Origin: Bacteroidales bacterium
Lineage (GTDB): Bacteria > Bacteroidota > Bacteroidia > Bacteroidales > UBA932
Length of the DNA: 64,000 bases
NCBI GenBank assembly: GCA_017443025.1
Contig: JAFSPG010000018.1
Location: 1-64,000, forward strand
Direction: 5' to 3'
Below, in pieces: positions 3,425 through 27,668 of the stretch. The notes below the pieces were generated by a model, which saw only the letters and a list, made by a program, of their open reading frames with translations, was not told the origin of the DNA and ran no database searches. A program made the position numbers and the translations under genes. Position 1 is the first letter of the stretch; every line of letters starts with the position of its first letter.

Positions 3425-4468
3425 ATGAGGGAACTTATCACATCGGCACAGAATCCTAAGATAAAGGAGCTTCTTGCGTTGCAGGAGAAATCCCGCCTGA
3501 GACGCAAGGAGGGGCTCTTCGTGCTGGAGGGCCGGAGGGAGCTTGAGCGCTGCGTCGCGGCCGGCATGAAGGTGCGCACGCTGTTCGTGTGCCCGGAAAT
3601 TTTTGGTCTTGCGGAGAACGACGCCGGACCATTGGCCCTGTCAGGTGTGCCAAAATTTGCGCCACCTGGCGGGAAAAGGCCGGAAATCCCGGCAGGTGGG
3701 TCAGAAAATGTACCACCTGACAGGATGGCCCTCGGGGATGGCAGCTCCGCGACGCCGATCCTCCCCACTCCGTGGGTCCCCTCCCTTTTCGGGAGCCAAA
3801 GTCGGCTTTCGCGGACTGCCAACCCCGAGGCAGGGCTCGAATTGACTCCAGAATCGTCCTCCGATTTGGGCACAGCGGTGTTCGAGGTGAGTGCGGCGGT
3901 GTATGAGAAGATTGCGTACCGCGGCGGGACGGAAGGAGTGATGGCGATTGTGGAGACGCCGGAGCTCGGGCTCGAACGGCTGAATCTTCCGGAGAAGCCG
4001 CTCGTGGTGGTGCTGGAAGCCGTCGAGAAGCCCGGCAATCTCGGCGCCGTGCTTCGCTCGGCCGATGCTGCCGGAGCCGACGCCGTGATAGTCTGCGACG
4101 AGTTGGCGGATGTCTTTAATCCGAATGTCATCAGGGCTTCGACCGGGGCGGTGTTCTCCGTGCCGGTTGCCGTGGCTTCTTCCGAAGAAGCGATAGACTT
4201 CCTCAAGAAAAATAATATCCGCATCCTGACCGCACAGTTGCAAGATTCGGTGCTATATTACGATTCGCCCATGACAGGCGGAACGGCCATAGTGATGGGA
4301 ACCGAGGATAAGGGGCTTTCCGATATCTGGAGAGAGGCCGCCGATGAGCATATCAGGATTCCTATGCTCGGGGTAGCGGACTCGCTGAATGTTTCGGTGT
4401 CGGCGGCGATTCTGCTTTTCGAGGCCGTGAGGCAGCGCCGGGGAGATGCCCGATCAGGTCGGGCATGA
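3425..4468 (+). CDS. SpoU/TrmH-family RNA 2'-O-methyltransferase with in-frame repeat insertion
   Basis: A SAM-dependent rRNA/tRNA ribose methyltransferase of the SPOUT fold. The N-terminal substrate-binding part is recognisable (ITSAQNPKIKELLALQEKSR) and the SPOUT domain carries motif 1 EKPGNLGAVLRSADAAG (about residue 201), motif 2 GTEDKGLSD (about 291) and motif 3 SLNVSVSAAI (about 320). At 347 aa it is roughly 80 aa longer than usual. The excess, about residues 72-149, is Pro/Gly-rich low-complexity protein encoded by palindromic repeat DNA (3637-3804) placed between the L30e-like N-terminal domain and the linker into SPOUT. The frame is kept and the catalytic core is intact, so the enzyme is probably active with an extended loop. 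It sits between lysS and aroE; a 20-nt tandem repeat begins just before its stop codon. Confidence 0.88.
   Translation: MRELITSAQNPKIKELLALQEKSRLRRKEGLFVLEGRRELERCVAAGMKVRTLFVCPEIFGLAENDAGPLALSGVPKFAPPGGKRPEIPAGGSENVPPDRMALGDGSSATPILPTPWVPSLFGSQSRLSRTANPEAGLELTPESSSDLGTAVFEVSAAVYEKIAYRGGTEGVMAIVETPELGLERLNLPEKPLVVVLEAVEKPGNLGAVLRSADAAGADAVIVCDELADVFNPNVIRASTGAVFSVPVAVASSEEAIDFLKKNNIRILTAQLQDSVLYYDSPMTGGTAIVMGTEDKGLSDIWREAADEHIRIPMLGVADSLNVSVSAAILLFEAVRQRRGDARSGRA
3637..3724. repeat. 88-bp nested palindromic element inside the methyltransferase gene
   Basis: The outer arms are perfect 11-bp inverted repeats, CCTGTCAGGTG (3637-3647) and CACCTGACAGG (3714-3724). Inner arms 3662-3673 and 3688-3699 form a 12-bp inverted repeat with one mismatch. 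The whole stretch folds as a long imperfect hairpin, like a REP/BIME-type element, yet it is translated in frame within a conserved RNA methyltransferase. Confidence 0.8.
3756..3804 (-). repeat. 49-nt intragenic repeat core, copy A
   Basis: Read on the minus strand, this matches 27232-27280 on the plus strand at 47 of 49 positions. It contains two adjacent hairpins: CTCCC-GAAAA-GGGAG and CCCAC-nnn-GTGGG. The only two differences between the copies fall in the 3-nt loop of the second hairpin. It is translated as part of the insertion in the SpoU-family methyltransferase. Confidence 0.9.
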
Positions 4469-25072: not shown

Positions 25073-26623
25073 ATGAGACGTACAAGAGTTAGATTCGCCC
25101 CCTCACCCACCGGTCCTCTCCATATGGGAGGAGTCAGGACTGCCCTTTACAATTACCTGTTCGCAAAGCAGAACGGCGGCGATTTCATTCTCCGCATTGA
25201 AGATACAGATTCACACCGCTTCGTCCCCGGAGCCGAGAAATATATAATCGAAGCCCTGAAATGGTGCGGAATCACCCCGGACGAAGGCGTTGACGCTGAA
25301 GGAAACGTGGTATCGGTAGCATCGGACAAGCATCCTCACGCCCCTTACCGCCAGAGCGAGCGCAAGCCTATCTACCGCAAGTACGCCGAGCAGCTGGTTG
25401 CCTCCGGCAACGCCTACTATGCCTTCGACACGGCAGAGGAACTTGCCGCGAAGCGCGCCGAGGCCGAAGCCGCCGGGCAGACCTTCATCTATAACCAAAA
25501 TACACGCAAGGAGCTCCGCAATTCGCTTACCCTCAGCGAGGCCGAGACCAAGGCCCTTCTCGAGGAGCGCAGCGACTGGACCATCCGTTTCAAGATGCCG
25601 GAGAATACCGTCGTAAAGATGGACGACCTCATCCGCGGACACGTGGAGGTCAACACCGACACCCTCGACGACAAAGTACTCTGGAAGAGGGCCGACGAAC
25701 TGCCCACCTATCACCTCGCCAACATAGTCGACGACCATCTGATGGAGATTACCGAGGTAATCCGCGGCGAGGAATGGCTCCCGTCCCTGCCCCTGCACTA
25801 TCTGCTTTATCAGGCCTTCGGCTGGACGGACACAATGCCCCGCTTCGCCCACCTTTCGCTTCTGCTCAAGCCCGACGGCAAGGGTAAGCTCAGCAAGCGC
25901 GACGGCGACAAGATGGGCTTCCCCGTCTTCCCCTTGCGCTGGGTTAACGCCGAGGGCGAAGTCTCTCGCGGATACCGCGAGGACGGTTACTTCCCCGAGG
26001 CCTTCGTAAACCTCCTGGCCTTCCTCGGCTGGAATCCCGGCGACGACCGCGAGCTCTTCACCCTCGAAGAACTTGTTCCGGTCTTCTCGCTTGAGCGAAT
26101 CATCAAGTCCGGCGCCCGTTTCAACCCAGAAAAGGCCCGCTGGTACAACCGCGAATACCTTAGGATGAAATCCGACTCCGAACTGGCGAAACTCCTCGCC
26201 CCCATTCTCGAGGAGAACGGACTCAAGGGAGCCTTCACAGACGAATATGTAACAAAGGCCGTAGCCCTTGTCAAGGAAAGGGCCTTCTTCGTGCAGGATA
26301 TCTGGGAGAGCGCCAAGTGCCTCTTCCTCGCCCCGAAGGAGTATAACCAGAAGGATGTGGAGAAGTTCTGGAAAGAAGACACTCCTGCCATGGTCAAGGC
26401 TGCAGTCAAGGACCTCGCCGAGAAGGGAGACTTCTCTTCCAAGGAGGCTATCGAAGAGCATCTGGTAGGCTTTATCAAAGGCAACGAATGGCCGATGGGC
26501 AAGGTAATGAACTCGCTGCGCCTTGTTCTTACCGGAGCCGCCAGCGGCCTCGGAATTGCCGACATAATAAGTTTCATTGGGCGGGATGAACTTCTCCGCC
26601 GCGTTAACGGATGTGCGCTCTGA
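25073..26623 (+). CDS. gltX: Glutamyl-tRNA synthetase
   Basis: Charges tRNA-Glu. The class I HIGH-type motif is within APSPTGPLHMGGVRTAL and the KMSKS-type motif is KGKLSKRDGDKMG (about residue 272). The C-terminal helical anticodon-binding domain includes GKVMNSLRLVLTGAASG. 516 aa, normal for Bacteroidetes. Its placement only 3 nt after ftsZ makes it part of the dcw transcript, an arrangement I do not know as standard. It overlaps truB by 13 nt. Confidence 0.96.
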   Translation: MRRTRVRFAPSPTGPLHMGGVRTALYNYLFAKQNGGDFILRIEDTDSHRFVPGAEKYIIEALKWCGITPDEGVDAEGNVVSVASDKHPHAPYRQSERKPIYRKYAEQLVASGNAYYAFDTAEELAAKRAEAEAAGQTFIYNQNTRKELRNSLTLSEAETKALLEERSDWTIRFKMPENTVVKMDDLIRGHVEVNTDTLDDKVLWKRADELPTYHLANIVDDHLMEITEVIRGEEWLPSLPLHYLLYQAFGWTDTMPRFAHLSLLLKPDGKGKLSKRDGDKMGFPVFPLRWVNAEGEVSRGYREDGYFPEAFVNLLAFLGWNPGDDRELFTLEELVPVFSLERIIKSGARFNPEKARWYNREYLRMKSDSELAKLLAPILEENGLKGAFTDEYVTKAVALVKERAFFVQDIWESAKCLFLAPKEYNQKDVEKFWKEDTPAMVKAAVKDLAEKGDFSSKEAIEEHLVGFIKGNEWPMGKVMNSLRLVLTGAASGLGIADIISFIGRDELLRRVNGCAL

Positions 26624-27543
26624 CGGCAGACAGAAGCCTGAAGATGCTGTCCCGGTCGATTGACGACTATCCCGAGGGCATCATCTTGCCGATAGACAAA
26701 CCCTATCGGTGGACCTCCGCTGACGTAATTCGAAAGATAAAATTCGCAGCCGTAAAGCACTTCGGCAAGAAGAATCTGAAGGTCGGCCACGCCGGCACCC
26801 TCGACCCTCTGGCTACCGGAGTACTGATAGTCTGCATAGGCAAGGCCACCAAACTGGCCGAAGAAATACAGAAGAGCGATAAAGAATATATCGCAGGCAT
26901 AACTTTCGGGGCCACTACCCCCTCGTACGACCTCGAAAAGCCAATCGACAGGATGTACCCGACCGACGGCGTGTCGGAAAACGCCGTAAGGAAGGCGCTT
27001 GAAGGTTTTATCGGCGAGCAGGAGCAGGTGGCGCCGCTGTTCTCGGCCAAGTCGGTCGACGGCGTAAGGGCCTACGAACTGGCCCGCAAGCTGTACCGCA
27101 GCGGCGGAGAGCTCGACGCTCAGGCTGAGGAACTGCTGTCCAGGCAATGGATAACGATTTCCGCCACCGAACTTCTTTCCTTTGAGACTGGGCAAAGAGG
27201 GACCAGAGAGGACGGACATGGAGGGAACCGACGACTTTGGCTCCCGAAAAGGGAGGGGACCCACTGTGTGGGGAGGATCGTCGGCCCCTCTGTGCCCGGC
27301 CCCGACAGCGCTGGAGCATCTGGACGGATAAACGTTACGGATAACAGCGGGCTGGGGCTCCCGAGGGCGGAAGTGAGGATAGCCTGCTCGAAAGGCACGT
27401 ACATCCGTGCCTTTGCGCGCGACCTGGGCGAAGCCCTCGCCTCCGGCGCGCACCTCGACAGCCTGATTCGCTCGCGCTGCGGCGAATTCACGGTCGAGAA
27501 CGCCCTACTCCTCGAAGAAGCCCTCGCGCTTCTTCAAAAATGA
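26611..27543 (+). CDS. truB: tRNA pseudouridine-55 synthase with in-frame repeat insertion
   Basis: Isomerises U55 to pseudouridine in the T loop of tRNAs. The catalytic Asp is Asp65 in KVGHAGTLDPLATGVL, and GGVRAYELARKLYRSG-type sequence (VDGVRAYELARKL) and SKGTYIRAFARDLGEAL (about 260-276) are family marks. About 60 residues (roughly 191-250) between ELLSFE and LPRAEVRIACSKGTY do not belong to TruB. They are encoded by repeat DNA containing the 49-nt core at 27232-27280. The frame and the catalytic residues are intact. The start could also be ATG 26644; 26611 overlaps gltX by 13 nt. It is the last gene of the dcw transcript. Confidence 0.92.
   Translation: MCALTADRSLKMLSRSIDDYPEGIILPIDKPYRWTSADVIRKIKFAAVKHFGKKNLKVGHAGTLDPLATGVLIVCIGKATKLAEEIQKSDKEYIAGITFGATTPSYDLEKPIDRMYPTDGVSENAVRKALEGFIGEQEQVAPLFSAKSVDGVRAYELARKLYRSGGELDAQAEELLSRQWITISATELLSFETGQRGTREDGHGGNRRLWLPKREGTHCVGRIVGPSVPGPDSAGASGRINVTDNSGLGLPRAEVRIACSKGTYIRAFARDLGEALASGAHLDSLIRSRCGEFTVENALLLEEALALLQK
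27232..27280 (+). repeat. 49-nt intragenic repeat core, copy B
   Basis: Matches the reverse complement of 3756-3804 at 47 of 49 bases. It forms hairpins CTCCC-GAAAA-GGGAG and CCCAC-TGT-GTGGG; in copy A the second loop is GGA. It is translated here in the opposite orientation to copy A, as LWLPKREGTHCVGRI, within the TruB insertion. Confidence 0.9.
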
Positions 27544-27566
27544 TAAACAATACCTTATTGTTTATC
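27542..27566 (+). terminator. Hairpin immediately after truB
   Basis: A perfect 11-bp stem (27542-27552 with 27556-27566) with a 3-nt loop begins within the truB stop codon. It overlaps the left arm of the larger inverted-repeat element, so the two folds are mutually exclusive. It is AT-rich and has no clean T run, so terminator function is likely but not certain. Confidence 0.5.
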
Positions 27567-27668
27567 TAAAAACCGTGGTCGCCCGTGACCTCGTGAACGG
27601 GAGGGGCCCAACTGAAAGTTGGGAGGGATAGCGCCGTAGGCGCGTAGTTTTTAGATAAATGATAAGGT
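27552..27668. repeat. 117-bp element with 22-bp terminal inverted repeats and three internal hairpins
   Basis: Terminal arms 27552-27573 and 27647-27668 pair over 22 bp with two mismatches. Inside lie three hairpins: CCCGT/ACGGG (27582-27601), CCCAACT/AGTTGGG (27607-27623) and GCGCC/GGCGC (27631-27643), with AGGGAT (27624-27629) between the last two. Together they give a four-way-junction, cloverleaf-like shape. The order hairpin-GGGG-hairpin-AGGGAT resembles the intragenic core in truB. It fills the gap between truB and the next gene; it may be a MITE-like remnant or a transcribed structured element. Confidence 0.7.

What the first reader, a model, noticed from the sequence alone, without database searches (positions are those of the whole stretch)
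27184..27350. Same repeat core, opposite orientation, inserted in TruB
TruB carries a foreign ~60-residue loop between two conserved beta segments. Its DNA contains the reverse complement of the core in the methyltransferase gene with 47/49 identity. The only two differences fall in the 3-nt loop of a CCCAC/GTGGG hairpin, implying selection on structure rather than on the encoded peptide, since the two copies are read from opposite strands. Both hosts are RNA-modification enzymes, which may be chance or may point to a role of the RNA hairpin in regulating them.
Basis: partly seen in the sequence, partly recalled or inferred. Interest (0 to 1): 0.9.

Follow-up and report, generated by a model that had tools for sequence, protein, structure and literature searches.

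The report
Flipping hairpin repeat inside bacterial genes
A small repeated DNA hairpin, spread through one family of gut bacteria, sits mostly between genes that end head-on but sometimes inside protein genes without breaking them, and its 43-letter centre flips direction between related genomes, which points to a mobile DNA element rather than to a control switch for one enzyme.

Summary
The truB insert and the methyltransferase gene (window 3759) carry the same core in opposite orientations, 47 of 49 identical, both differences in a 3-nt loop. The cores belong to a repeat family: 9 copies in this genome, 43 of 199 genomes of its family, 83 of 400 of its genus; of 393 genomes of its order 4 match, all in its own family.

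A copy is a near-invariant 43-nt, two-hairpin core capping an inverted repeat (median 26 bp) whose sequence differs from locus to locus. Most copies lie between convergent genes (109 of 146 gene gaps holding a copy; 34 of 495 gaps without one). Some lie in frame inside genes, read in all six frames. In 11 of 24 groups of matching loci the core is flipped between genomes, once inside a GH92 gene that stays open both ways.

Best reading: a mobile palindromic repeat, like REP or Rickettsia palindromic elements, whose arms and flipping are explained by replication template switching. RNA regulation of the host enzymes is not supported, although RNA-modification genes are over-represented among coding hosts (5 of 14).

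The parts
26611..27543 (+). truB coding sequence, open across the element
   Evidence: ORF 310 aa; TruB_N E 1e-38, residues 54-160; TruB_C_2 E 4e-5, 24 bits, below its cut-off of 29.3, residues 266-303
27208..27303 (.). family-1 element in truB: two arms plus core
   Evidence: fold (z -3.8 for 27184-27350), (22 pairs enclose the core, 27208-27303 outermost, 27234-27278 innermost)
27235..27277 (-). 43-nt core of the family-1 element (two hairpins); TCCTCCCC...GCCAAAG reads on the minus strand
   Evidence: coordinates; model hit 27220-27294 minus, E 2e-20
3425..4468 (+). SpoU-type RNA 2'-O-methyltransferase gene, open across the element
   Evidence: 347 aa; MRM3-like substrate-binding domain 10-60 and SpoU_methylase 193-332, on either side of the element
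3730..3830 (.). family-1 element in the methyltransferase gene: arms CCTCGGGG..GCCGA / TCGGC..CCCCGAGG plus core
   Evidence: fold; one search hit 3742-3816, E 6e-25; the enclosing pairs reach out to 3716 and 3834
3759..3801 (+). 43-nt core, opposite orientation to the truB copy
3637..3724 (.). second, imperfect palindrome (38-nt arms, 74% complementary) next to the element in the same gene
   Evidence: I1
27552..27668 (+). family-2 element just after the truB stop codon: 22-nt arms (91% complementary) around a 73-nt core
   Evidence: I2; z -5.6; 16 further rows in the own genome, about 15 places

Best explanation
It is a small mobile palindromic DNA repeat (about 95-110 bp). A conserved 43-nt core, able to fold into two short hairpins, caps an inverted repeat of about 26 bp. 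SHOWN: it is dispersed over many unrelated loci in one bacterial family; it sits mainly in the gap between convergent genes; some copies are in frame inside genes; arms match within a copy but differ between loci; the core is flipped in place between related genomes; whole copies are absent from some matching sites. INFERRED: copies spread by an enzyme acting on the folded single strand (no enzyme identified); arms are kept alike, and the core inverted, by DNA polymerase switching templates between the arms during replication; copies in genes survive only where the frame stays open and the protein tolerates a loop; at convergent gene ends the hairpin serves or is tolerated as a two-way 3'-end structure. 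In truB it is a passenger in an insertion-tolerant linker.
For: Dispersal; 208 distinct copies collected. Matches in the order only in the own family. Arms: 169 of 201 copies with at least 20 paired bp, against 7 of 197 when the 3' arm is taken from a random other copy. Location: 109 convergent, 36 tandem, 1 divergent among 146 gaps with an element; 34, 384, 77 among 495 without. Inversion: 11 of 24 groups of matching loci, e.g. L045/L091 with 96% identical flanks. In-gene inversion in GH92 with both orientations open. All six frames used in host genes. Matching sites with and without the element: GH92 and the recQ-side locus. Template switching is reported to homogenise inverted-repeat arms and invert the spacer (PMC8604942, abstract) and to create and mend stems (PMC8794818, abstract and start of introduction). 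G-U pairs are few (20 of 2150 cells) while changes on both sides are common (515 cells).
Against: No transposase was linked. One own RAYT-type gene (L009) is flanked by a different hairpin, the other (L011) by none found; of 31 Y1_Tnp loci scanned, one has a family-1 copy within about 1.5 kb (not all Y1_Tnp hits were fetched); 2 of the 24 element-bearing genomes tested had no Y1_Tnp hit. No clear target-site duplication; the one clean absent site (G167) is best read as a loss. Only 26 of 201 copies have arms of 20 bp or more without any mismatch or gap, and in pairs with few arm differences compensated and uncompensated changes are about equal (15 to 14), so arm repair is not immediate; the 46 to 15 count includes pairs with many differences. 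A weak strand bias of G-U-type mismatches (75 to 44, P 0.006; related copies not independent) hints at one favoured strand.
Confidence: 0.68

Rival explanations
1. The element is a selected two-way transcription end or mRNA 3'-end shield. The core is a protein or ribosome signal; copies in genes are strays of a functional part.
For: Strong placement between convergent genes, with stop codon to core often about 40 nt on both sides. At the recQ-side locus G062 has a plain hairpin of about 20 bp where others have the element. The core is far better conserved than the arms.
Against: No U-tract: 10 nt after the arms hold 3.0 T on average against 2.45 background, with 6 or more T in only 14 and 10 of 201 copies. 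Many relatives show no match at all (317 of 400 in the genus, with filters that lose some weak matches). REP-like selfish repeats also collect at 3' ends (recalled).
Confidence: 0.18
2. One reading: an RNA hairpin that regulates RNA-modification enzymes.
For: 5 of 14 coding hosts are RNA-modification enzymes (TruB in two genomes, SpoU-type, TrmB, MiaA), and another copy lies directly upstream of queC. The truB linker holds other hairpins in relatives: 10 of 25 other TruB loci scored have z at or below -4.
Against: Other hosts are unrelated (NapH/NapG-like, CitX-CitG, NamZ, DnaX, GH92, M20 peptidase, PRK07208-type, a nuclease, an unknown). Copies inside genes are a minority (147 of 208 placed between genes). 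Both orientations occur. The truB linker varies freely and several relatives have no hairpin there.
Confidence: 0.06
3. An inverton: a site-specific recombinase flips the core for phase variation.
For: The core is flipped between relatives in 11 of 24 groups, and invertons are known in gut bacteria (PMC11892184, abstract start in the search listing).
Against: Arms differ from locus to locus, so there is no shared recombination site in them; flipping moves no gene or recognisable promoter (inferred from the convergent placement).
Confidence: 0.05

Closest known systems
Rickettsia palindromic elements (RPE)
   Same: Palindromic repeats of about 150 bp found inserted in unrelated genes, many in frame (PMC10969869, passages).
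   Different: [quoted passage not shown] here the core is read in all six frames. No invertible core or locus-specific arms are described in the passages I saw. Different bacteria; sequence similarity to RPEs was not tested.
REP / BIME repeats with RAYT transposases (Bacteroidetes subclasses 2.4 and 2.6)
   Same: Palindromic repeats outside genes; subclass 2.6 genes are flanked by atypical structures with copies elsewhere, and subclass 2.4 REPs can sit in frame inside the transposase genes themselves (PMC6006769, sections 23 and 25 and passages).
   Different: No GT[AG]G foot, a longer locus-specific stem, an invertible core, and no consistent RAYT beside it.
Quasipalindromes mended by template switching
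   Same: Arm homogenisation and spacer inversion, also inside coding DNA (PMC8604942, abstract).
   Different: There any inverted repeat is affected; here a conserved core is dispersed as a repeat family.
Genomic and intragenic invertons
   Same: DNA between inverted repeats found in both orientations, once in an open reading frame.
   Different: No recombination site shared by the arms; invertase genes were not searched for; spacer only about 43 nt. Intragenic invertons are recalled; no paper on them was read.

Membership tests
Rickettsia palindromic elements | Palindromic repeat of about 100-150 bp inserted in frame in protein genes | tested here: met
   hosts with domains or models on both sides of, or across, the insert, e.g. 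truB, SpoU-type, CitG, DnaX, M20
Rickettsia palindromic elements | Element encodes a conserved peptide | tested here: not met
   the core is read in all six frames in different hosts
REP with RAYT | Copies flank the cognate Y1 transposase gene | tested here: not met
   own RAYT locus L009 has another hairpin on both sides; 1 of 31 Y1_Tnp loci scanned has a family-1 copy nearby (L247)
REP with RAYT | GT[AG]G foot at the base of the stem | tested here: not met
   GT[AG]G within 6 nt of either foot in 13 of 87 copies, against 7 of 87 random stretches; copies with ungapped arms under 15 bp or short flanks were left out
MITE | Terminal inverted repeats shared by copies, and target-site duplication | tested here: inconclusive
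   Arms are inverted repeats but not shared between loci; a 3-nt repeat GCG at one absent site fits loss as well as insertion
Intrinsic terminator | GC stem followed by a U-tract | tested here: not met
   6 or more T in the next 10 nt in 14 and 10 of 201 copies
Inverton | Recombination sites shared by the inverted arms of different copies | tested here: not met
   Arms differ between loci
Inverton | A dedicated invertase | not tested
   Invertase genes were not searched for
Any Rfam family | Match at the gathering score (window), or E up to 1 (8 family-1 loci) or 5 (9 family-2 loci) | tested here: not met
   nothing at the elements

The most novel reading that the evidence does not exclude
The mobile unit is the 43-nt core alone: a 'hairpin cap' that inserts at the tip of existing hairpins or near-palindromes, after which template switching perfects the arms and flips the cap. 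Different caps then trade places on the same spots. Support: at the GH92 site a relative without the element already has a near-palindrome matching both outer arms, and carries a third, 21-nt cap with the same end letters; truB carries family-1 or family-2-like cores in different species; one site 3' of a RAYT gene, with flanks 96.5% and 91% identical, holds family 1 in one genome and a family-2-like core in another, though their arms differ too; a plain hairpin stands in for a capped one. Against: all own copies except the truB one share inner arm letters, so some arm travels with the core.
Probability: 0.25. Interest if true: 0.85.

Novelty: new variant of a known kind. Interest (0 to 1): 0.6.

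Why it matters
It adds a palindromic repeat family that I found in no catalogue searched, with three unusual traits together: arms private to each locus yet closely matched, a core that is flipped in place, and in-frame life inside conserved genes in all six reading frames. It gives many natural examples that fit template switching acting on real genomes, warns that covariation in long stems need not mean a selected RNA, and shows how new protein loops may arise in enzymes such as TruB, MiaA, TrmB and DnaX. The excess of RNA-modification hosts is a small open question that more genomes can settle.

Tried and rejected
Truncated-transposon or RAYT-REP reading: Y1_Tnp loci were searched and those fetched were scanned for hairpins and core letters; no consistent link. 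One of the three own Y1_Tnp hits (C17:212968) overlaps what looks by eye like a cytidylate-kinase-type ORF and was set aside. Known RNA family: rejected. Phage or plasmid carriage: no exact match in viral contigs, no blastn match in phages or plasmids. Strand preference of the structure: G-U-type mismatches 62 B / 82 A in a first count and 44 / 75 in a second; weak and not independent. Six-frame openness of the core: P 0.11 against shuffles, so not significant; 62 of 208 copies hold a stop triplet on one or other strand of the core. Arms wholly host-derived (inverted target duplication): considered from the truB and GH92 comparisons, but the empty GH92 site was already a near-palindrome and the G167 site lacks both arms, so not adopted.

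Coding hosts: 40 loci have an ORF of 130 aa or more running across a copy; ORFs of 39 were scanned with Pfam, all but L111, which is masked by N. My first list (21 of 132) was too generous: L028, L109, L140, L065, L088, L083, L045 and L157 gave no Pfam match and were dropped, as were the further ORFs without a match; L029 (Mfa2) has the element at its edge, and L261 (GNAT) has its domain far downstream so that the start codon may lie after the element; both were left out. L087 was first read on the wrong strand (no match) and kept after rereading. L075/L078 were kept on coding score alone (no Pfam match); NamZ (L026) and the nuclease (L304) have a domain on one side only. The strict coding-score test (7 of 208) misses several hosts that family models support.

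Literature: no paper with 'Cryptobacteroides' plus 'inverted repeat' and none printing the core letters of family 1 (the one hit, for a family-2 string, is a cancer paper). Statements about what is not in print rest only.

Full report
WHAT IS THERE. The window lies on contig C17 of a 1.66-Mb genome. truB (26611-27543) and a SpoU-type RNA methyltransferase gene (3425-4468) each contain, in frame, a 43-nt core in opposite orientation: 27235-27277 and 3759-3801. Around each core are arms that pair with each other. A covariance model from eight own copies finds nine copies in the own genome (E 6e-25 to 8e-18) and nothing else up to E 1. Among eight own copies, 8 of 12 stem pairs show changes on both sides.

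THE FAMILY. The model hits 43 of 199 genomes of the family, in 7 of 25 genera, at E 0.01, 83 of 400 genomes of the genus at E 0.001 and 4 of 393 genomes of the order at E 1e-4, all four in the own family; these larger scans used filters that lose some weak matches. There was no exact match in viral contigs and no blastn match in phages or plasmids, and Rfam gave nothing at these places.

ANATOMY. Read in one orientation: arm, T, CCTC, hairpin CCCAC(nnn)GTGGG, TCCC, hairpin CTCCC(TTTTC)GGGAG, CCAA[ACT]G, arm. Paired arm length is 26 bp at the median (quartiles 23 and 29); 169 of 201 copies reach 20 bp, against 7 of 197 when the 3' arm is swapped for that of a random other copy; 26 of 201 have 20 bp or more with no mismatch or gap at all. 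The arms differ between loci and genera; the core hardly does. On 99 distinct aligned copies 96.6% of cells pair and 16 of 22 pairs have double changes, also in the core hairpins, with 0 of 500 shuffles as high on these two measures (the count of pair types is not raised: 133 of 500); sliding the partner by one column drops pairing to 48-53%. This alignment was fitted to the model and so leans towards its structure.

PLACE. In a codon-scored gene call, gaps holding an element are 109 convergent, 36 tandem and 1 divergent; gaps without one in the same loci are 34, 384 and 77 (odds ratio about 40; related loci are not independent). A per-copy count of 208 gives 107 convergent, 38 tandem, 2 divergent, 7 inside genes by a strict test and 54 with one or both sides unclear. 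In tandem settings the core shows no preferred direction (12 same, 17 opposite).

INSIDE GENES. Hosts with family-model support: TruB (window; L112), SpoU-type (window), TrmB (L020), NapH/NapG-like fusion (L022), CitX-CitG fusion (L023), NamZ (L026, domain on one side), MiaA (L132, two tandem copies), DnaX (L160), GH92 (L333/L337), M20 peptidase (L292), a PRK07208-type protein (L087), a nuclease (L304, domain on one side); plus a 424-443-aa ORF without a Pfam match kept on coding score (L075/L078). That is 14 host genes, counting orthologous pairs once, out of 40 loci with a spanning ORF, 39 of them scanned (see Tried and rejected). For TrmB and MiaA the matched model stretch lies on one side of the element; the other side was recognised by eye. 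In these hosts the core is read in all six frames, so the peptide is not what is conserved. For an assumed base rate of 2-3% this gives P 0.0015-0.005, a post hoc figure. queC has a copy just upstream.

THE truB LINKER. Forty of 41 genus genomes have a TruB match. The stretch where the element lies varies in length among the sequences aligned. Of 25 other loci scored, 10 fold with z at or below -4 (L193-L196, L198-L200, L204, L211, L215), among them family-2-like cores in L194, L196, L198 and, reversed, L199 (read by eye); others, such as L203, L206, L208, L210, L212 and L213, show no hairpin; four (L191, L201, L217, L218) were not scored because the script did not find their linker ends. The own linker itself scored only z -1.8 in that test (60 shuffles), though the 167-nt finding region scores -3.8. 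So the site is insertion-tolerant and repeatedly occupied.

FLIPPING. Flank comparison gives 24 groups of matching loci; one of them (L295) is two copies in a single locus. Eleven groups contain both core orientations, in pairs whose flanks are 79-97% identical. L045 and L091 have near-identical arms and flanks and a reversed core. In a GH92 gene two genomes with about 97% identical flanks carry the core in opposite orientations, both open; L337 also lacks 33 nt next to it, with part of one outer arm. Arms change in concert between orthologs: 46 compensated, 15 one-sided and 1 other difference in 18 pairs; but when pairs with more than six differences are left out the figures are 15 and 14 (15 pairs). 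Across the family, changes on both sides are common (515 cells) while G-U pairs are few (20 of 2150 cells). Template switching between inverted-repeat arms is reported to do exactly these two things, homogenise arms and invert the spacer, in coding DNA too (PMC8604942 abstract), and to create and mend stems (PMC8794818 abstract). I therefore do not take arm covariation as proof of RNA function.

SITES WITHOUT THE ELEMENT. At the GH92 site relatives L379 and L380 lack family 1 but carry a 21-nt mini-core (TCCTGTTCGTAAGGGCCAAAG) between their own arms, and the spot matching the family-1 arms is an imperfect palindrome in L379 (read by eye); L381-L389 lack both cores, L386 having other inserted sequence. 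At the convergent recQ-side locus five genomes hold the element, G120 in one orientation and G109, G197, G151 and G131 in the other; G167, 99% identical to G120 on one flank and 93% on the other, lacks 118 nt with both arms, bounded by GCG repeats, best read as a loss because the relatives share it; G046 and G159 have no core, and G062 has a plain hairpin of about 20 bp (the gene name recQ is recognised by eye). On the 3' side of a RAYT gene, G131 (L247) has family 1 and G151 (L248) a family-2-like element, each with 30-bp arms that differ; the flanks are 96.5% identical over 2,627 nt and 91% over 287 nt.

SECOND FAMILY. Directly after truB, 27552-27668 is a related element with a 73-nt core; a search with it gives 19 rows in the own genome, three of them itself or its own arms. 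Of 16 places printed, 12 show long private arms around a conserved core, L178-L180 differ in the 5' half, and L181 could not be folded because of its locus length.

MOBILITY. Y1_Tnp genes occur in 22 of 24 element-bearing and 10 of 20 element-free genomes that I picked from the lists; the choice was not random. One own RAYT gene is flanked by its own, different hairpin. The mobilising enzyme is unknown.

VERDICT. A mobile palindromic repeat of REP/RPE type with locus-private arms and an invertible core; new as a variant. The regulatory reading for TruB is unlikely.

Noticed in passing
window 3637-3724: A second imperfect palindrome (38-nt arms, 74% complementary) lies beside the element in the same methyltransferase linker, so two inserts seem stacked there.
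   Followed up: no
L009 1237-1285 and 2944-2992: A Y1_Tnp (RAYT-type) gene of the own genome is flanked on both sides by near-identical copies of a hairpin with core around CCCGAAAATGGAC, a typical RAYT-REP arrangement.
   Followed up: partly
L178-L180: A variant of family 2 whose 5' half is replaced by two other hairpins while the 3' half (GGGAGGGGCCCA..TGGGAGGGATAG) stays much the same.
   Followed up: no
L379 around 1963, L380 around 1981, L333 around 2126: A 21-nt mini-core TCCTGTTCGTAAGGGCCAAAG with its own arms, sharing end letters with family 1: a possible third family.
   Followed up: partly
L132 770-934: miaA carries two tandem family-1 copies in frame.
   Followed up: no
L247 2693-2797 and L248 2907-3021: At the same site 3' of a RAYT gene one genome has a family-1 and the other a family-2-like element, each with 30-bp arms.
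   Followed up: partly
L030 1518-1679: Two family-1 copies about 120 bp apart in direct repeat between two genes of the same direction.
   Followed up: no
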